A stretch of DNA of 64,000 bases, from contig NC_071347.1 in assembly GCF_027744825.2 (NCBI RefSeq), forward strand, positions 23,855,001 to 23,919,000. Reading direction: 5' to 3'. A program made the position numbers and the translations under genes. The notes beneath the pieces are model-generated. The model worked only from the letters and a program-made list of their open reading frames with translations, was not told the origin of the DNA and did no database searches. Positions 1,440 through 44,127 of this stretch are shown in pieces (positions within the stretch are counted from its first letter, which is position 1; each line of letters begins with the position of its first letter). Origin of the DNA: Synchiropus splendidus (lineage: Eukaryota; Chordata; Actinopteri; Syngnathiformes; Callionymidae).

Positions 1440-2293
1440 GCTGATCTGAGGTCGGATTTCTCCGTGCCAGCAGGGCAGCGGGCGGCTGAGCTCGGAGCAG
1501 CGCAGATCTCAGGTCAGCCCGCGCAGCCCTCGCGCTCCCCCCGGGCCAGTGTTGATGACGCCGGGTTATGGCCGCTCTGCGCGCCGTGTGGGATCCTTCA
1601 TTTCTACACTGAGGGCGCCGAATCGACTGTTGATACCCCGTGTGTGGCGTGTACACTGCTCACTGACGGCGGGAGAGAAGGGTGCCGGGTGCGCAGTAGC
1701 CTCTTTGCGGAGCTCCGGGACAGCAAGGTAAATGGAAGCGTTGGTTAGCAGAGGGGCTGCACCGTTAGCCTAGCACCAGCGCGTCACGTTAGCCCGAGCG
1801 TTAGCCTAGCATCCGCACATGACAAAAGCCAGGCACAATGCGCGGACCCGAGTGTTGCCGACGACGCGAGTCCGTCGGTAGCGGTGGTTTCACAGGTAGT
1901 TCGCGGTGTGTTCTGCCCGAGTCTCTCGTTTGCCGAGCTCCCCGAAGTTCTGGGCCTTGTTAGCTTGAAGCCGCCGCTGGCTAAAGTAGCCGGCGTTTGC
2001 TGCCAGTTAGTTCCTCTCTGAGTTGACGCGGTCGGGCTCCAGGTGGAGCAGAGTTGGGGTCACCAGCGGCCCGGTCTGCCTGAGTTCTTGAGCGAGTGCA
2101 CAGCCGCAGCGCATCAGCTGACCGACCGTCGGTGGTTCTTCTGCAGCAGGGGCGAGCGGCTCGGTTCTTGCTGCCGTGTGAGGGGAACCTTGTGCCGTGT
2201 CTCACCCCCGAGACTCGTGAAACCATTGGAACAAAACTCTGTCGGTGAAGCAGCTGAGTGTTGAGGTGGCTGTGGGGTGACGGGGAGCAGAGC
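1440..2293 (+). promoter_or_regulatory. zc3h18: CpG-rich probable promoter and 5' UTR of zc3h18
   Basis: This block is GC-rich and full of CpG, unlike its flanks, and precedes the first coding exon of zc3h18 by about 2 kb. A donor-like CAAG/GTAAAT lies at 1727/1728 and a second, CAGG/GTGAGT, at the start of the minisatellite near 2303. Either could end a non-coding first exon. The transcription start is inferred, not seen. Short GTTAGC-type repeats occur at 1742-1815. Confidence 0.5.
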
Positions 2294-2810: not shown

Positions 2811-4327
2811 ATTCTGTCAGTGTCCATGAGCATGAAGTTAGTCTTCGAGTTCTGTCTCTGACTTCTTTGTCCTTCTAATGGGTGCTACTCTCTGGCGAAG
2901 GTTATGGTCCTCCTCCCTGGATGTTTTGGCCACTTCTGAACCCAGAGGTGAGGTTGGGTGACGCTTTGGCAGAGAGGGAAGAGAGTGCATGAGCTAGGTC
3001 AGGACCAGGTCATTGGACAAGTATTGATATCCCAGAGTCTTGTGAGTCAAGGCTATGATTGTCTCCCAGTGATTCATCAGGGTGAGGCTCCACCACCGGA
3101 GTCCTCGAGATCGGCCTGGGAGTCTTCTCAAACCAGGAAGTCTTTGCGGTCCCCACAGCCCCCGATCTTCATGGCAAATGCAGTTTGAAACTTTGTTTTT
3201 CACCTGTTCTGTTGATCAGACCAGACCTTCTCCATGTACATTTCAAGGCCAAGTGTTTCAGCTTCTGAAGTGTAGAATCACCTCTGTATTAGTGGTTTGG
3301 GTGGTTAGGGATGTCTGGTGACTTTTCACACAAGATCTACTGCTGAGAACGGTCCCCACCATGAGAGTTTAGCATCTCACGATAAATGTAGTATGTTGGT
3401 ATGTGGTGCTGGATGTGGGTTTTTAATACACAGCAGCTCAAGAAAGTACGTCCTCGTCAGGAGCAAGGACGCAAGCGGCCATCAACGTACCCGTAGACGG
3501 GGTCTCTGAGGTCCATCTCACTGCGAGAGGAAACACGAGTCATTATCAAAAGCCCTGAAAATGGTGGTTACTTTCTAAACCCATAGGACAGCAAGGGTAG
3601 TGAGGCCAGTCAGAAGCTCAGCGCCTCAATAATGACGTGAGACTCGGAGTCAGTGTTTGCTTTAGTTGGGTCGGTTGGTTGTTGTATGAGGGCTCAACAC
3701 ATGCAGGGTCCCCCGCAGTGCTGCTGCCGCCGCCTGCGCTCCCTGCCTCATCACGCCAACAACAGATGATGCTCCTACTGGGAATATGAACATCTCCGCC
3801 ACGTCTTTCACGTCTCGGAGTGCTTGCTGACTCACAAAGCCACAATTTAATGCCAAAATGAAGTTGGTAGATCACAATCTGTGTGGTGATAAACACTGAT
3901 CTGGGATCTGTGAGAGACGAGGAACACTGAATAACTCATCTCGGTGCTTGGGTACCATAATCATTCATATTTAAACATGAACAGATGAGCACGTTGGAGA
4001 GTGGAGACCCGTGAAGCGGAGAACTGAAGTGACCAGTTAGTTTCATCATATAGCAGTTGGGCTTTCCAGACACTAGTGAGTTGAACACATGTAACGGAAT
4101 GGAAAATGTATCCGGGTTTTTATGGTTCTCACCAGAATGGAACATTTTTTCATGCAAATTCTTTTGCCTATATTTCCGCTCGATGGGCAGGACCCATCTG
4201 AACATAGTGAGTGAAGTAATGTATGTCTGACTTTGACACGTGTTTGACACAGCAGCGACTTGGTTTTGTCTATCAGCTCTTGACCAAGAAGAGGTTAAAA
4301 TTGTTTTGTTTTTTTTTTTCTTTTCAG
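2811..4327 (+). other. zc3h18: Intron 1 of zc3h18, with an inverted exon copy
   Basis: No separate gene seen. It ends in a polypyrimidine tract and acceptor TTTTCAG at 4321-4327. Its one notable content is the inverted duplication at 3428-3625 (own entry). Confidence 0.6.
3428..3625 (-). repeat. Inverted duplicate of zc3h18 exon segment 7572-7768
   Basis: The reverse complement of 3428-3625 matches 7572-7768 with only a few substitutions and one single-base indel. The copied segment includes the whole 30-nt exon (7677-7706; antisense copy 3491-3520, identical), its acceptor, its donor and about 60-100 bp of flanking intron on each side. The duplicate lies antisense to the gene. No TSD or poly(A) tail is visible, so it is not retroposed; an inverted segmental duplication fits best. 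Confidence 0.93.
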
Positions 4328-4338
4328 CAAAATCTCTC

Positions 4339-7300
4339 ATGGAGACGCCCGAAAGCCCGTCTCAGTCTCCCCAGTCTCCTGAGGAGGCAGAGAAAGGCTT
4401 TTCTGAGGCTGAGCTCCTGGATTCTCCCGAGGACCGGGGTGTCTCAGATGAGGAGAACAGAAGTGCACCGGAGGAGGAAGATGAGGCAGTGGACACCATA
4501 AATGATAATGGATTTGAGGAGGATGAAGCTGACGAGGTGGTACCAGACTTTGTCTCCGAAGCAGAGGACGAAGGGCTAGCAGGAGAAACTGGAGAGATGG
4601 AGCAGGAGGATGAGGACATCTTGTTGATGGAGGGAGATGATGAAGGTGCCAAGTCAGATGAGGGAGAGGAGGATGGACCTCTCAACACTCTAAAATCTCC
4701 CTCAGAATCAGCGCTGGGCCCAGAGGGCATTGGTGAAGAGGATGGAGAAGCAAGGATTGAAAGCCACCGTAGAAGTGTGTCAATCCCAGAAGCCCACGAT
4801 GAAGGAGACGATGAAGAAGGGGAGGACGAGGAGGGGAAGAAAGCACAGGACGAAGAGGATGAAGACCACATGACAGAGCAGCGGAGGAGAGCAGTGGCTG
4901 TCAGAGAGATGAAGGACGACCCGACATCAGTCTCTCGGGAGCTTGACGAGCACGAGCTGGACTACGATGAGGAAGTTCCAGAGGAACCTAACATCCCCAC
5001 TCTGGAGGAGGAGGAGGATGAAGATGATACCAAAGTCGAAGATGACGATGAGAACGAGGAGAGAAGTGTGAAGAGAGACAAGAAACCAATCCTTCCTCCG
5101 TCACCCTCAGAGGGAGATTCCAGGAAGCTGGACGACCCCAAAGGTCATGAAAGGTCACGGAGAGATTCCTTCCGAGATAAGAAGAAAGATGACGACGATG
5201 GAGAGATTGACGAAGGGGAGATTGATGTGAGTGGTCCCTGGTGATTTTGCTCTCAGATGATTTTTACAGAATAATACTTCATCGCACAGTGGCAGAAACG
5301 TGTTGGAGCGGACACGAGCAAAATGATCCAGCAGTTGGAACATGTGGGTCTGAGGGTGGTGCAGCGTGTCCTGGCCAAAAATGCATGCTCTGTCCAGCAC
5401 ACCCATCTCCGAGGTGACCGTCTGACTGGTGCGAGCTCTGGCTTTGATCAGAGAGTGGCTTGAAAGAATGGTGCTGTGGGAAATGTCGCAAGCACAGCGC
5501 TGTAGACCCAGTCGGTCAGCCATTCACATACACTGAGGTCGCCGGAGGAGGGTTCTCCTGCTGGCTCTCTCATCAGCGTGGTTGACTGTTTGTGTGCAGG
5601 ACGACGACCTGGAGGAAGGCGAAGTGAAAGATCCGTCTGACAGAAAAATCCGACCTCGGCCAATCTGCAGGTTCTTCATCAAAGGTCAGGCGCTCTCACA
5701 TGATGTTTGCGTCTGAATCTCTTTATATGTGCTTCCCTCTTAAACTTTGGTGTGACTTCACTCTCCCCTTCTTCTCTCTTATACAAGCCTTTCACTTCAT
5801 TTGTCGTCAGCATCCCCTTATTGTTTTCTAGAGTGAAATGCATTTGAGGTAATGTGTCGTTAGACCAACAGGTGGCGCTGTTAGACTGGGTGTGAAGTGA
5901 CATCAGTGACTGCAGGAGGTGAAAAATGCTGCTGTGTGATCGGTGATGTGTGTCCACCTGAAGGCGCCTGCTCACCTCTGAATCACCGCGCTGCCTTGTG
6001 TCTCGCAGGAAACTGCACCTGGGGAATGAACTGCCGCTTCATCCACCCTGGAGTCAACGACAAGGGGAACTACTCCCTCATCAGTAAGCCAGACGTCTTC
6101 TCTCCGAACGGAGCGCCCCCTGGGGCGCCGCCCCCGCTCCTGCCCAACAACCCTTGGGTCTGTGTCTCTCACGGCAGACTGATGTGAGCGTGCTGCGCCG
6201 CTGACTCAATTCCTCCCTTCACCTGTCGCTTCAGGTGGGGCCTGCTGTAGAGGAGCTCCCCCCGCCGCCGCCTCCCCCCGTGGAGCCTCCTGTGGAGAGC
6301 GCCTGGGAGCGCGGCCTGCGACACGCCAAAGAGGTAGTTACACGGCTCCACAGCCTCGCGGGGCCAGCGGCTGCTTTTGTTCCAGATGTCGCAGTGAAAA
6401 TCAAACCTCTGCGTGAGTGGTGCTGAAGGTGTCGCAGTGAAGAAGCCTGATGCGAGTCTGACGCACGTCTGCTGCTCATGTTGTCTGAGTGGGTCTGGGA
6501 TGACTCGGGCCAGACTTCGTCTTAACCCGGTCAAGGCTCGCACGTGTCACACGACTTGGTGCTACATGTGAGGTTGCAGGAGGAGAATGGGCGGGGCTTA
6601 TTCCTCACTGACATGAAGCAATCTGAGATGGTGAGTGGGAGGAAGACTCCCCCGAACTAACTACTGCGATAATGCAAGAGAGGAACATGTGTCTGCTTCA
6701 ACACTGGGCAGATCAGGTTGACTACATCTGAGGCAGGAATCTGTCATGCAGACGACACCGGAACAGTCATGTGTTCCGACGCTGCTGGATCGTGGATCGT
6801 CAGGTTCATTAGCCAGACGTTGCTGTTGGAACCTTTTTGTTCAGAATCGTTGAACGTTCAGAAAATTTGCATCTGACCCTTTTGGAGAAGCCAACTAGTG
6901 TTTTGAGGCGCAAATGATTTTATGATTTGTTCTGTTTGTGCAGCTCCAGATGATTGGTTTGACTTGATAGATGTTCCCTGAATCGTTTGATAATTTAGCC
7001 CTTTCTGTTCCTGCTCCTGTGTTTACTTTCTTCTCACGTCACTCGTACTTTCCACTTGATGCCCGGAGCAGATGTTTTTCGGCTTTAACTGCTTCAGCAT
7101 TGTTGAAGGGTGTTGGCGCGATACTGGCTGCATCACTGCTCGATGTCATTTCTCATCCGACTGGTTCTGCTAATGCTGCAGTTGAGGTGTGAGACGCTCG
7201 GGTCCTGATGAGCTCCTGCAGACGCCCGGGGGGAGCCTGACGCTCGTGTGTGTGTGTCTGCGCCCACAAACAGTCCAACGTGTCTCCTGCTGTGCCCGAG

Positions 7301-9644
7301 CAGGTCCTGAAGAAGGCCACCATCCGGAAAGAGCAGGAGCCGGACTTTGAGGAGAAGCGCTTCAACGTGACCATCGGGGAGGACGATCGGGAATTTGACA
7401 AAGAGAACGAATTCTTCAGAGAACGCAGCTACCGCATCATCAGAGAGTGAGCTGCTTGCTTTCCCATGAGCTCGTGCACAGGTGTCCTCTGCTGTCGCTA
7501 ACAACCGTGCAGCAGCAGAGGACACCTGAAACTGAAGTTCAGGAGGTCCACGCAGGCAGCCCCCACCAGAGGGCGCTGAGCTTCTGACTGGCCTCACTAC
7601 CCTTGCTGTCCTATGGGTTTAGAAAGTAACCACCATTTTCAGGGCTTTTGATAATGACTCGTGTTTCCTCTCGCAGTGAGATGGACCTCAGAGACCCCGT
7701 CTACGGGTACGTTGATGGTCGCTTGTGTCCTTGCTCCTGACGAGACGTGCTTTCTTGAGCTGCTGTGTAATTAATTGTGTGTCCTGCAGTGACCCCTACG
7801 CTGACCCCTACTACGACTATGAAATGGAGACGCTGTGGCGAGGTGGCCAGTACGAGAACTTCCGAGTGCAGTACACTGAAGCTCCTCTGCCCTACCACTA
7901 CAGCGTAAGTGTCCTGCCACCGTCATGGATCGCCCAACCTCCTCCTCCTCCTCCTACTCCTCCTCCTCCTCCCCTCACTCGGCCAGGCTTCTATGAATAG
8001 TGCTCATGTTTGTCTAAAGCCTTCCAACCTAAACAGCATCACTCCCTTTCCTGACAGGGCTATTTACACTCTCGTCTGAGGTCACGTTCACACTGCGGGT
8101 TCTGTCTCCAGATAAAGCTCTTTCGGCTCAGAAGTCAGAGATGTGAACACAAGCCAGTCGGGTTTTGGCCGCGGACCTGATCCCAGCTGGAGAGGGCTTA
8201 GCTTCTGGCCTCAGATGACTCGGCGCTAGATGCTGGAAACTAGGTGTCCGGCGCAACTCCACACCAACATGATAGGTGCCGGCCAGTGAAGGGTCTGATG
8301 GCTGTCGGGGTGACCGACATGCTTCAGAAACAACTTCTCAGGCTCCCAGAACGCTGAGGTGAGCAGCTTCAGCTGCAGGAGACTGGAGCTGGGGAACAGG
8401 AGCGCGGCGCAGCACAGCGGTCCAGGACTGGAGGTGTGTGCGGGGGTTTGATAGCTCAGGTGTTTTCTCCTTTATTAGGCTGATCAACACCTGATGTTGC
8501 TGACAGACAGAGTTGCTTCAGTGAATCACGCTGCGCTCTACAGTCACTGTTCTCACCGCTGTGATCTGCAGCTGTCACTGCATGAGGAGCACAGTGAGGA
8601 GGAACGCGTTACTGAAGATTACCAGACCATTCATGGATCACTTCTGACGTCTGGATCTGGACTTCACTGACTGAAACCTTCTCCATCCTCAGTCATCTCT
8701 CTCACTGTGGTCAAGGTGTCGTGAGAGCAGCGTGGACCGATCCAGACGCTCCGTATTACACAGCTTGTTTCCTTGTAAAACAAACATGACGAGACTCTTC
8801 CATGTTTAGTTTTGGCTGTGAAACACCACATTCTGTTCCAGCCGTGGCTCAGTTCCGTCATCAGTTCATATCTGAGGTGAGGACGACTGGTAGAGCTAAG
8901 AATTGACAGAAATAAGGAGCTCAAGGCCATGGCGGTAAACAGGTTGTTGCGCGGCTGATGGCGACTTCCTTGAGACCTGCTTCATCGTGGGTCAAAAACC
9001 AGCTACTTTGTGCAGAACGCTGCCAGCTGAGCTGGAAAAAAGGGACAGGGCTTGAGGCTGCACAGCAGGGGGCGAATTGGACCCACCCAAGACAGAACCC
9101 TCAGTGTGAAAAGCGGTGACATCAGCTTCAGTTGGGACTCTGGCTGCTGCTGTGCTCAAAGATGGAGGTGGTCTGTGTGTTTGATGTAGCAGAGCTGCTC
9201 GTGTTCTGAAAAGACAGAAGAGTTTGCTGTTGAACCAGCTTGTCGCTGCATGGGCCGGGCATCTCTTGATGCTGACGTGATCAGTGCCAGGTCAACCTCT
9301 CTGACCCCACCTGCTGCCTCTCAACAGGACCGAGAGCGTGACCCCAGAGAGCCACACCGGGACCGCGAGAGGGAGCGGGACAACCGCGAGAGGGAGCGGC
9401 GGCAGAGGGAGCGGGAACGGGAGCGTGAGCGCGAGAAGGAGAGAGTGCGGAGGAAAGAAGAGTGGGACAGAGAGCGGCTGAAGCGTGATGACAAGGAGAG
9501 GCCCAGGATGAGACCGCCACGAGAGCTCCGGGACAAGAAGGAGGAGGACAAGCTCAAGCCTCACTCTCCGCTCACCATGCCACCAAAGTGAGTGGTAGCG
9601 ACCTCCCTGGTCCATGTGGTGAACACTCCACAGTCTTCCCGCCA

Positions 9645-9730
<86 letters not shown>

Positions 9731-12700
9731 GGTATCAAACTGCTGTGCTCTGAGGTGAGGCCTGCCCCTCCAGTCTGTGGACTCCTCTCTTCTGGCCCTG
9801 CTGCTCCACAGACTGCCCTGGTTGCTGCACACAGGCACCAGTGAGTGTCACTTGTCTTGTCGCTGTAGGAGGAATGAATGTTGCAATGCTGCGGCCCCGG
9901 TGACTGGTGGTGGCGGCGGCGGCGACCTGTCACACCTGTCATAGCAGCCGTGTGAAAGTGTCTCTGCGTGAGGAAGCATCTGGAATGCACTGACACCGTT
10001 TCTGTTGTGCTGCTTCATTTCCTGTTTAGATGTTAGAGTGGAACTCGGTTCTTCCCTCCCCTGACCTCAGGCAACAGCTCTTGGTCTCCTGACTTGAACC
10101 GCGTCTGCAGGTGCCGACAGCCGCAGTGAGAGTCATGGTCTGCCGTATCTGCCGTGGTCTTGCGTGTGGGTTTAGTGTCCTCTTTCAGTCACAGAGAAGT
10201 CAGTGTGAGGTGGACACGCCTGTTTGCCTGGACCTCAGGGCTGCGAGCTCACGCAGGTGGTTTCCCCGTGTGCTCATGTTGTCATTAGCTTTTACCAGAA
10301 GTCTCCTCAGAGACGTGTTGCGTCATCAATCCATAATGTCTTATCATAACACTGGTGCTATTCTTGGATCCACTTCCTCAAGTGTCCTGTTGAATGTGTT
10401 CTATATTTGGATCTTTGGATTCTAAACTTATCTTACCTATATTTAGCTCTGGCCTGGGTGTAACTCTGTCTCTGTACTCACCAGGGACGTCACTGATGTC
10501 TGACGGAGCCTATCCTCCACAGACACCTCACCCGTGTCCACACTCACTTTCTCGTGTTACTGCCGTTTTCGCTTCATGTGCCGAGGTTGGAATGTCACTG
10601 GTGGTTCCCCAGCAGTCACTGATTAACACATGATATTCCCTCCGAGCTTCCGCAGCACGGCTGCTTTCTCCACGCCAATATCCGCTCCAGCCTTGCTTTT
10701 CCAAAGTCAAAATGCCCCATTCAGTCCTTGGTGAGTGATGATGGCGCGGTGGGAGAAGCTCCGCCTTGGTTTGATCCTGGTCTCTGCCTAGAAAGGACTG
10801 AGGTCAGTGACTTTCAAAGAGGTGCGTTGGCGGTCACGGAGGCTTTCCACCGGCACTGCCCCTCCCCCAGTTGGGTGCATTTAGGTTCATGTTGTCCATT
10901 CTATGTTGAGCACCGGCACAATGAGCCACGAGTCTAAAGGTGCCGTTTGCTCCGCTCCCTCACCGAGCGTCTCCCCTCTGCCTGGCCAGCAGGCCGCTGG
11001 AGCCGCTCATGAAGAAAGATGTCCTGCCGGTGATGAGGCGGCCCGACGAATGGAAGGATCCGTGGCGTCGGTCAAAGTCTCCACGGAGAAGACCTGGACT
11101 GGGCTCCCCCCTCAGAGGCCGCAGGAGACATCGGCCATCTGGTTCCTCCATCTCTCCGTCCAACTCTTCCAGGTAGGAGCTTCACCCGAGCCGTCGCTCC
11201 TCCTTTCCTCCACCTGGAGGTGACCTCTGTTGAGGACTGACTCAGGGAGCCAACTGAACCTTGTTGGTGACACTGCCCAGGACCCTGAGCAGGGCGTGGT
11301 GAGGCGGCGGCCCCCTGCTGGGCTGTGCTTCCCACGCGAGGGTGAGCTCCATCTTACTGCCGTGCTCCAGGTCATGTGAGGAATGACTCTCTGACGGCGA
11401 TGCTCAGAAAATGCCTCATGGTCATGGATGGATTTAATAGAAATGAGCAGGGAACAGTCATGTTATTTATTCGTTTCCTCATTCATTCAAGCATTTTTGG
11501 ACATGACGTTTATAGTTCAGTGACTTTTCTATCATTGCATTTCCACATACATTAATTTATCTTTGAGCAGCGTGTTAATGATGACCCTCCCAACAAACCT
11601 GCTGGGGGCGCTGTGGCATCAGTGCCGAGGCAAACAGTGTCTGGACGCAGAGCTCCAGCGTCGACGCTTGTGACATCCTCCTCCACGCCGCAGGTCTTCC
11701 TCCCGGTCCTCATCCTACACCGGCTCCGGTTCGTCTCGGTCCAGCAGCCGCTCGTCCTCCTTCAGCTCCTACTCCAGTCACTCGTCGCAGCACAGCTCCT
11801 TCAGCGGCAGCCGCTCCAGGTGAGTGCTCCCAGCCGCACCTGTGGAACTGGAGAGTCCACTTCACACGTGACGACACAAATGGATGCCCTCAACAAGCCT
11901 GGTCCACTGCTGAGGGCCATAAGGAGGTGCCCCTGTAGTCGGGTGGCAGGTCTGAGGAACCTTCTCCTGAGGCACTGTCTTCCCCCCGTAGGTCCAGATC
12001 TTTCTCCACCTCTCCATCACCCAGTCCTGCAGCCCCGAGGAACAACAAGAACAAAGCAGAGCCTGCTGCTGCTGCTGCTGCAGCAGCCAGAGGGTGAGTG
12101 AGTCACGCTCCTCACTGGTGGTGGTGGTGGTGATGATGGTGAGGAGGACTGGGTCAGACGAGGTCTCGCGCTGTAGGAAGATCTTGAAGAGACAAGTGTC
12201 TCTTCAAGATCTTCAAGATGGTTAGCCTCTGCAGAGAGAAAGCAAATACACTGTTCACCTGAAGCAGGACGGTGCAGGAACGTGAGCATCTGTGAGACAC
12301 TCTGAGGAGAGGTAGCCGGACCAGGACAGGGATTGTCCTCCATCACCAGAGCCACTGGTGCAAGCTCTGCCAGATAATTGACCCCTCATCATCATCGTCA
12401 TCATCACCAACAGGTGGAAGACTGGAGCCAGTTTAACTCTGGCCTTCTCACCCTCTGGAAGGATGCCAGCGAAGCCCGGCGCTGTGAACCCCCCTCGCAG
12501 AGAGAAGCCTCCCATGAAGAAGCCCCCAACTTCTCCTCCGCCCGGAGCCCCTCCGGGTCGACCTCCCAAACCTCCACTGGAGGCAGCCAAGCTGCCGGCT
12601 AATCCTCGGGAGAGAGAAGGCGCGGGGAGCGGCGGGCCGGCGAGGCCCCCGCCTGCCCGAGAACCTGGGAAGCCTGCGGTCCAGAGGGAAGGAAGGAAGA

Positions 12701-23210: not shown

Positions 23211-25443
23211 CTAGGCCTGGCCGTACGGCAGCGGGAAGCGCTCCTCCCGCTTGCCGCAGCGCTTGGCCACGATGGCCAGGTAGAGCAGCAGCAGCACCAG
23301 CCAGTAGGAGGCGTAGAGGAGCGTCCCGGCCAGCAGCAGCGCCCGCTCGGTGGCGCCGAAGGGCTCCTGCGCCTCGCAGTAGACGGTGTAGGCCACGCCC
23401 CCCAGCAGCACCAGCGCCCACACCGTGACGGGCACGGCGCCCACCAGGTTGACCACGATCCTGCGGCGGCCCGAGGTGCCCCAGCCCGCCTTGTTGATGG
23501 TGAGCAGGGCGAAGATCTTGGCGGGCAGCAGGCTGGACATGTAGAGCAGCGAGTAGAGCGACATGAAGCTCATGAGCAGGCTGCCGCGCAGGAAGCAGGC
23601 GTAGCTGGCCTTCACCACGCCCACCAGCTGCACCGTCAGCAGGAAGAGCAGGATGCTCCACAGCCGGCCGCGGTAGAAGAGCTGCAGCACGGTGGCCACC
23701 AGGAAGAAGGGGAAGAAGCCGGTGACCAGCGACTCGTAGGTCATCCACAGGCTGTGCTTGTGGAACCACAGCGCGCTGTAGAGCCACTCGCGGAAGTAGG
23801 ACTTGCTCCAGCGCGTCTGCTGGTTGAGCCAGCGCAGGTAGCGCGTGGGCGTCTCCGTCTGGCAGCGCGAGCGCGCCGTGAACTTGGTCTTGTAGCCGCG
23901 GCTCAGCACGCGGTTGGTGAGGTGGCGGTCGTCGCCGAAGCTGCACTTGGAGCCCAGGAAGGTCTGCTGGTACCAGGGCTCCAGGAAGCTCTGCAGCAGG
24001 GCGTTGCGGTACATGCCCAGGGGCCCGCTGATGCACTGCACGCAGCCAAAGTAGGACTGGCAGGCGCGCTCCACGTTGAAGGCCATCCAGTAGCGCACGC
24101 TGCTGAGGAAGGAGATCCACGAGTCGTACTTGTTGAGGATCTGTGGAGGAGCGGCGGCGGGTCAGGGCGGCGCGGCGAGGCGCGGCGCGGCGCCGGTGCA
24201 CCCACCTGGACGTCTCCTCCGACTCCACCCACCGTGGGGTCGTCCTCCAGGATCTTCAGCATCTCCATGCTGCACGCAGGATCCAGAACCGTGTCCGAGT
24301 CACAGACCTGGGAGCACAGGTGGGACGGGTGAGAGAGCGCGCCTGTCCGGGCCTTGGCCCCGGGGCCAATCGCCACCACGCCGCCCACATCCTGGGGCTC
24401 GGGCCGGGGCCTTTTCACACTGAGGGTTCTGTCTCGGCTGGATCTGAGGGGTCGGGTGAACTGATGACGGAGCTGGCGTTTCACAGCCAAAACTAAACAT
24501 GGAAGAGTCTCGTCATGTTTGTTTTACAAGGAAACAAGCTGTGTAATACGGAGCGTCTGGATCGGTCCACGCTGCTCTCACGACACCTTGACCACAGTGA
24601 GAGAGATGACTGAGGATGGAGAAGGTTTCAGTCAGTGAAGTCCAGATCCAGACGTCAGAAGTGATCCATGAATGGTCTGGTAATCTTCAGTAACGCGTTC
24701 CTCCTCACTGTGCTCCTCATGCAGTGACAGCTGCAGATCACAGCGGTGAGAACAGTGACTGTAGAGCGCAGCGTGATTCACTGAAGCAACTCTGTCTGTC
24801 AGCAACATCAGGTGTTGATCAGCCTAATAAAGGAGAAAACACCTGAGCTATCAAACCCCCGCACACACCTCCAGTCCTGGACCGCTGTGCTGCGCCGCGC
24901 TCCTGTTCCCCAGCTCCAGTCTCCTGCAGCTGAAGCTGCTCACCTCAGCGTTCTGGGAGCCTGAGAAGTTGTTTCTGAAGCATGTCGGTCACCCCGACAG
25001 CCATCAGACCCTTCACTGGCCGGCACCTATCATGTTGGTGTGGAGTTGCGCCGGACACCTAGTTTCCAGCATCTAGCGCCGAGTCATCTGAGGCCAGAAG
25101 CTAAGCCCTCTCCAGCTGGGATCAGGTCCGCGGCCAAAACCCGACTGGCTTGTGTTCACATCTCTGACTTCTGAGCCGAAAGAGCTTTATCTGGAGACAG
25201 AACCCGCAGTGTGAACGTGACCTCAGAGGTCAGAGGTCAAGGCTGCAGGAGGATTTGACGCTTCTTCTGGATGAACCAGCTCCGTGTGTGTGTGTGTGTC
25301 TGGTTTATGCTCACTTGTGGGGACCATTTGGCTGGACCCCACAAGGTTCAGCCTCAGTTTGAGGGTTCAAACCTAACGGGCTCTTGGTCCTGGTCCTGTT
25401 GAGAGGCCGGGGAAAGGGCGATGGCCAGGAGAGGTCCCCACGC

Positions 25444-35985: not shown

Positions 35986-43330
<7,345 letters not shown>

Positions 43331-43685: not shown

Positions 43686-44115
43686 TTGATCGGTAAATCA
43701 ATCTGATTCCCCCCTCACCTATGGTCACCAGCTTTGGGTCATGACCGAAAGGATGAGATGAGTTTCCTCCGCAGGGTGGCTGGGCGCACCCTCAGAGATA
43801 GGCTGAGGAGTTGGGTCATCCGGGAGGAGCTCGGGGTGCAGCCGCTGCTCCTCCTCATCCAGAGGAACCAGCTGAGGTGGCTCGGGCGTCTGATCCGGAT
43901 GCCCCCTGGACGCCTCCCTGGGGAGGGGTTCCGGGCATGTCCTACCGGGAGGAGACTGGCTGGAGAGATGCTGTCTCCGGTCTGGCCTGGGAAGCCCTCT
44001 GGATCCCCCGGGAAGAGCTGGAGGAGGTTTGTGTGGACCGGGAAGTTTGGGCTTCCTTGCTCCGAATGCTGCCTCCGCGACCCGACCCCGGACAAGCGGC
44101 AGAAGAAGGTGAAGG
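43686..44115 (+). mobile_element. LINE 3' fragment (copy B), 5'-truncated
   Basis: Same reverse-transcriptase C terminus as copy A (IREELGVQPLL, RMPPGRLPGE, PPRPDP). Flanked by a 12-bp direct repeat TGTAACGACAGA at 43674-43685 and 44116-44127, a clear target-site duplication. Both copies end in GAAGGTGAAGG. About 355 bp upstream of the cryptochrome start. Confidence 0.92.
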
Positions 44116-44127
44116 TGTAACGACAGA

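What the first reader, a model, noticed from the sequence alone, without database searches (positions are those of the whole stretch)
3428..7768. Inverted copy of a zc3h18 exon with both splice sites inside the gene's own first intron
About 198 bp at 3428-3625 is a near-identical reverse complement of 7572-7768, including the 30-nt exon 7677-7706 (identical in antisense at 3491-3520), its acceptor and its donor. The primary transcript can fold into a ~197-bp duplex across 4 kb. Inference: this would mask the small exon and favour its skipping, could be an ADAR substrate, and, because the two arms flank the four exons between 4328 and 7446, could promote a circular RNA. It may also be recent or an assembly artefact, since the divergence is only a few bases.
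Basis: partly seen in the sequence, partly recalled or inferred. Interest (0 to 1): 0.78.

Follow-up and report, generated by a model that had tools for sequence, protein, structure and literature searches.

The report
Backward exon copy in zc3h18 intron
In this fish gene a roughly 200-letter piece holding one tiny exon has been copied backwards into an earlier intron of the same gene, so the primary transcript could fold onto itself over that exon; the copy looks real and recent, but whether it changes splicing has not been shown.

Summary
Window 3427-3625 is the reverse complement of 7572-7769 (199 aligned columns, 3 transitions, 1 one-base indel) and carries an exact antisense copy of the 30-nt exon 7677-7706 with both splice sites. 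The gene is a fish zc3h18. A search of its 583-Mb genome found the segment only at these two places, so it is not a dispersed repeat. The arms flank five coding exons, not four. Best origin: one recent, replication-based inverted duplication. A minimum-energy fold of 4.6 kb of transcript pairs 198 of 199 arm bases and covers the exon's splice sites; but 40 of 56 bases around the exon also pair in a local fold without arm 1, and intron 1 may be spliced before arm 2 is transcribed. Exact skipping appears in one mudskipper protein; 25 other fish-type proteins carry the exon. Exon masking, editing and circular RNA remain plausible and untested. A new member of a known kind.

The parts
3427..3625 (-). 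arm 1: inverted copy of 7572-7769 (fringe to 3423), in the putative first intron
3491..3520 (-). antisense copy of the 30-nt exon, identical
7572..7769 (+). arm 2: source segment (fringe to 7774): end of intron 6, the 30-nt exon and start of intron 7
7677..7706 (+). 30-nt in-frame exon of zc3h18 (EMDLRDPVYG; skipping keeps the frame)
4328..5226 (+). zc3h18 exon with the start codon (ATG 4339), first of five exons between the arms
5600..5684 (+). zc3h18 exon between the arms
6009..6157 (+). zc3h18 exon between the arms (with 5600-5684 it encodes the CCCH finger)
6235..6333 (+). zc3h18 exon between the arms
7304..7446 (+). zc3h18 exon between the arms; 125 nt separate it from arm 2
7790..7904 (+). 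zc3h18 exon after the 30-nt exon
1480..1727 (+). putative non-coding first exon (5' limit arbitrary; donor GTAAAT at 1728)
   Evidence: inference

Best explanation
A single recent duplicative event copied about 200 bp (the 30-nt exon 7 with its flanking intron) in reverse orientation about 4 kb upstream into intron 1 of the same gene, most likely by replication template switching or microhomology-mediated break repair (inferred). As a result the primary transcript can form a duplex of about 199 bp that loops out exons 2-6 and covers exon 7 (shown by fold prediction only). My commitment on effect (inferred): mainly a near-neutral passenger. In those transcripts where intron 1 is still present when arm 2 is made, it lowers exon 7 inclusion somewhat and offers an ADAR substrate.
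For: Only two genomic matches, both in zc3h18. The longest word shared by the 15 nt before and 20 nt after the copy is 3 nt, and there is no poly(A) beyond a run of five A at one end (seen), so no sign of a target-site duplication or retroposition; intron is copied along with exon. The source is the exon-bearing copy by logic: the exon segment is present in 25 fish-type proteins. 3 substitutions in 198 sites (1.5%), i.e. about 0.8-1.5 million years at an assumed, recalled 0.5-1e-8 per site per year. GC is 0.586 against 0.396-0.61 (16 of 19 at 0.46 or less) in 19 hand-picked stretches, and the gene lies about 490-500 kb from the end of contig C14, perhaps a subtelomeric setting prone to rearrangement (inference). 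Fold: RNAduplex -421.6 kcal/mol against -49.7 and -53.4 for the arms alone; 198 of 199 arm bases pair within 2 nt of register in the MFE of 3300-7910. Precedents: an inverted 4,260-bp exon-bearing segment in DMD, one patient, 2-bp junction homologies, put down to FoSTeS/MMBIR (an inversion with deletions, not a duplication; PMC4303224, passages); template switching makes reverse-complement copies (PMC8794818, abstract).
Against: All 4 differences lie in the 52 columns at the donor-side end and none in the other 147 (P about 0.02), a little uneven for one event plus random mutation; later gene conversion is possible. Junction microhomology cannot be judged without the empty site. The ape template switches of PMC7954356 are called within 100 nt of a mutation cluster (passages), much nearer than 4 kb. 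No DNA from a related fish could be had, so direction and date are not shown by an outgroup.
Confidence: 0.72

Rival explanations
1. A working cis-acting 'anti-exon': the antisense copy masks exon 7 and sets its skipping level, giving a species-specific ZC3H18 isoform that lacks EMDLRDPVYG. (Compatible with the origin given above.)
For: All bases of 7660-7715, with both splice sites of the exon, are paired in the MFE with arm 1; skipping is in frame; the same skip exists in one mudskipper entry (P0088); all 3 substitutions between the arms are G-U pairs in the RNA (about 1 in 8 by chance given transitions, my reckoning). In TERT, non-conserved intronic repeats drive skipping by pairing, shown by compensatory mutations (PMC3948165, abstract and discussion).
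Against: No RNA data. Young, conservation unknown. Without arm 1 the local fold of 7304-7904 already pairs 40 of the 56 bases of 7660-7715. Splice sites of the exon are ordinary. Arm 1 may be spliced out before arm 2 is made. 25 fish-type proteins include the exon segment against 1 that lacks it, and that one is an unreviewed UniRef entry, probably a predicted model.
Confidence: 0.12
2. The arms promote back-splicing of exons 2-6 (4328-7446) into a circular RNA of 1,375 nt that carries the start codon. (Compatible with the origin given above.)
For: Arms lie on either side of exons 2-6, the usual layout for circle formation (recalled); a study of human genes finds conserved complementary regions enriched outside circular RNAs (PMC8052449, passages); a human circZC3H18 has been measured in blood (PMC7031184, passages; its exons are not named in the passages seen).
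Against: Arm 1 is about 700 nt from the exon 2 acceptor, and arm 2 spans an exon rather than lying in one intron; five exons in the loop. No RNA evidence.
Confidence: 0.1
3. An older inverted duplication kept alike by gene conversion or template switching between the arms; the identical 147 columns are the last converted tract.
For: Clustered differences, P about 0.02. Homogenisation of inverted-repeat arms by template switching is described for yeast (PMC8604942, start of abstract in the listing).
Against: Only four differences; a single young event explains them with modest strain.
Confidence: 0.13
4. Assembly or haplotype artefact.
For: No reads could be inspected; the region is GC-rich and repeat-rich; the genome-wide uniqueness of the flanks was asked but not answered.
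Against: Chromosome-scale assembly, four differences, flanks unlike those of the source, 4-kb spacing unlike fold-back read artefacts (the last point recalled).
Confidence: 0.05

Closest known systems
Replication template-switch / MMBIR inverted duplications
   Same: Reverse-complement copy of nearby sequence, no sign of a target-site duplication
   Different: About 4 kb away and about 200 bp, farther than the short-range events called in apes (PMC7954356, passages); it captured a whole exon with both splice sites; junction homology not assessable
Inverted Alu pairs (IRAlus) in introns
   Same: Intronic inverted repeats able to form long dsRNA around exons (PMC11263572, start of abstract in the listing; links to editing, circRNA and skipping recalled)
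   Different: Not a transposon; one arm contains the gene's own coding exon, so the exon itself is in the duplex
TERT intron 6 repeat RNA pairing
   Same: Young, non-conserved intronic sequence pairing with distant pre-mRNA (PMC3948165, abstract and discussion)
   Different: There supported by compensatory mutation; here only predicted, with one long and nearly perfect duplex instead of 38-bp repeats

Membership tests
Fish ZC3H18 gene (host gene) | CCCH finger and similarity to ZC3H18 | tested here: met
   PF18044 40.6 bits (cut-off 24.6), the other three Pfam matches below cut-off; best 12 hits 87-95% identical over 88-92% of the 226-aa query region, named ones all fish ZC3H18 or CCCH proteins
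Dispersed transposable element | many genomic copies | tested here: not met
   2 matches in 583 Mb
Retroposed gene fragment | intron loss, poly(A), target-site duplication | tested here: not met
   intron copied with exon; only a 5-A run at one end; longest word shared by the 15-nt and 20-nt flanks is 3 nt
Template-switch/MMBIR inverted duplication | reverse-complement copy of a nearby unique sequence | tested here: met
Template-switch/MMBIR inverted duplication | microhomology at junctions | tested here: inconclusive
   AT-rich fringe with TTAA at one junction, none clear at the other, by eye; no empty site to compare
RNA-structure-regulated exon | pairing required for the splicing outcome (compensatory mutation) | not testable with these tools
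   no RNA or minigene data
RNA-structure-regulated exon | conservation of the pairing in relatives | not testable with these tools
   no fish DNA beyond the window's genome; viral-contig scan confirmed none
circRNA-forming inverted repeats | back-splice junction reads | not testable with these tools
   no RNA reads

The most novel reading that the evidence does not exclude
One mutational event gave birth to a self-complementary 'anti-exon' that already acts as a cis switch on a conserved in-frame 30-nt exon of ZC3H18 (a nuclear RNA-decay adaptor, recalled), with selection keeping the pairing (all three substitutions wobble-compatible).
Probability: 0.1. Interest if true: 0.7.

Novelty: new member of a known kind. 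Interest (0 to 1): 0.36.

Why it matters
It is a clean natural test, in one gene, of whether a young and nearly perfect 200-bp intramolecular duplex that covers an exon really changes its splicing, editing or circularisation, without the confusion of many transposon copies. If it does, it would show regulatory RNA structure arising in a single mutation.

Tried and rejected
Dispersed-repeat origin: rejected, two genomic matches. Retrocopy: rejected. Known structured RNA in the arms: no Rfam match in the whole window at gathering scores. Fish DNA relatives in viral contigs: 4 pattern matches, none confirmed. Paper searches: 0 papers for the exact combinations; ZC3H18 with microexon gave 2 papers with one mention of each term (listing only); ZC3H18 with alternative splicing and zebrafish gave 5 (listing only); circZC3H18 gave 1 (then passages); some searches gave listings, from which I opened only some of the papers cited. 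I saw no report of this copy, but those ten searches cover one open-access library. Genome-wide uniqueness of the arm flanks, of exon 2 and of the 8075-8828 repeat was asked but did not complete, so those counts are unknown.

The classes rest on a text pattern, not on exon maps. Of the 120 listed proteins (194 passed, 74 not shown) 27 were exon-type (25 fish-type, 4 of these unnamed; plus alligator and frog; P0007 and P0110 differ in a few residues at the start of the segment), 1 exact skip, 66 short-type (mostly tetrapods, also reedfish and coelacanth), 26 not parsed. The database is clustered at 90% identity, so isoforms that differ only by this exon may be hidden inside clusters and the rarity of skipping is not measured. 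In one search the rows for exons ending 1728 and 11174 were out of register by one and two bases and their donor scores are not used. The clustering P (about 0.01) used approximate columns and is replaced by that.

Full report
What is there. Window 3427-3625 is a near-perfect reverse complement of 7572-7769. The global alignment has 199 columns with four differences: 3447/7749, an extra base at 3452, 3471/7726 and 3478/7719, the three substitutions being transitions. A looser local alignment reaches 3423 and 7774 (97.5%, E 5e-93). The 30-nt exon 7677-7706, its acceptor and donor are copied without change.

The host gene. Joining the exons gives a protein whose best 12 relatives are 87-95% identical over 88-92% of the searched 226-aa region, the named ones being fish ZC3H18 or CCCH proteins, with a CCCH zinc finger above the Pfam cut-off. 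The 30-nt exon encodes EMDLRDPVYG at the junction ..RIIRD|EMDLRDPVYG|DPYADPYYDYE..; skipping keeps the frame. In one search a text pattern sorted the 120 listed homologues (of 194): 27 with the exon-type segment (25 fish-type, 4 of them unnamed), 1 exact skip (P0088, Periophthalmus; P0009 of the same species includes it), 66 with the short segment (mostly mammals and birds), 26 not parsed. A second search with the skipped form put P0088 first; no other fish entry in that list is classed as an exact skip (93 proteins from 101 candidates). Clustering at 90% may hide further isoforms. So the segment is kept in most listed fish proteins and is short or absent in many other vertebrates.

Where it is. 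The window lies at C14:23855001-23919000 of a 582.7-Mb, 96-contig assembly; C14 is 24.36 Mb long, so the gene is about 490-500 kb from the contig end. GC is 0.586 against 0.396-0.61 in 19 stretches picked by hand at round coordinates, 16 of them at 0.46 or less. With the minisatellite and young repeats around it, a subtelomeric setting is possible (inference; whether the contig end is a telomere was not checked).

Not a repeat family, not common. The arm has two matches in the genome, itself and the inverted copy. Of the three inverted pairs of 100 bp or more in the window at E<=1e-20, the other two belong to one dispersed repeat and are 14-16 kb apart. None was found inside the 19 stretches (190 kb, two of them largely tandem arrays; pairs wider than 10 kb could not be seen).

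Origin. The 15-nt and 20-nt flanks of the copy share no word over 3 nt, there is no poly(A) beyond five A, and intron is copied with exon: not retroposition. A replication template switch or break-repair copy fits, and is my inference. An inverted exon-bearing segment with 2-bp junction homologies is described in one DMD patient, as an inversion with deletions (PMC4303224, passages), and template switching as a maker of reverse-complement stems in PMC8794818 (abstract). All four differences fall within 52 columns at the donor-side end (P about 0.02 for so long an identical run), a mild hint of later conversion. At 1.5% substitutions and an assumed rate of 0.5-1e-8 per site per year (recalled) the event is about 0.8-1.5 million years old, or older if conversion occurred.

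What it could do. The arms form a predicted duplex of -421.6 kcal/mol against about -50 each alone, and in the MFE of 3300-7910 198 of 199 arm-1 bases pair within 2 nt of register with arm 2; 7660-7715, with the exon and both splice sites, is then fully paired. The control is less clear-cut: a local fold of 7304-7904 without arm 1 already pairs 40 of those 56 bases. All three substitutions are G-U pairs in the RNA; for transitions this has a chance of about one in eight (my reckoning), so it is a hint only. In human genes, exons looped out by conserved long-range pairings are included less, such regions are depleted around active splice sites, and editing is enriched in them (PMC8052449, passages). 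In TERT, non-conserved intronic repeats drive skipping by pairing, shown by compensatory mutations (PMC3948165, abstract and discussion).

Why I stay cautious. Thermodynamics says what could form, not what forms during transcription. Arm 2 lies about 3.2 kb downstream of the intron 1 acceptor, whose polypyrimidine tract is excellent (14 of 14), so arm 1 may often be gone before arm 2 appears. The exon's own sites are ordinary. No RNA data, no relatives' DNA and no reads were available. Hence: structure shown, origin well supported but not polarised, function inferred. The odds given for rivals are not exclusive: masking and circle formation are compatible with the origin I favour.

Verdict. 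A real, young, single inverted duplication that captured an exon. Ordinary in kind, unusual in geometry, and a good natural experiment.

Noticed in passing
2292-2811: Perfect 51-bp minisatellite, 10.2 copies, 100% identical, in the putative first intron; every unit holds a donor-like GGTGAGT and an acceptor-like CCCTCAG.
   Followed up: no
7479-7494 and 7513-7528: Perfect 16-bp hairpin stem in intron 6 just upstream of arm 2, paired in the intron's predicted fold.
   Followed up: partly
8075-8828 and 24474-25227: 754-bp inverted pair, 99.87% identical, in a zc3h18 intron and beside a hyaluronan-synthase-like gene (name recalled); a third, partial copy at 38479-39042. Genome copy number asked but not answered.
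   Followed up: partly
7563-7576: CTCF-like motif CCACCAGAGGGCGC (motif recalled) cut by the border of the duplication; the copy keeps only its last part.
   Followed up: no
12177-12214: 38-bp near-perfect palindrome in a zc3h18 intron.
   Followed up: no
733-1160 and 43709-44117: Direct dispersed repeat, 94%, with an open frame that looks like the tail of a retroelement (recalled).
   Followed up: no
7677-7706 and homologues P0001-P0120: The ZC3H18 segment at this exon differs among vertebrates: long in listed teleosts, a frog and one alligator isoform, short in listed mammals and birds, reedfish and coelacanth.
   Followed up: partly
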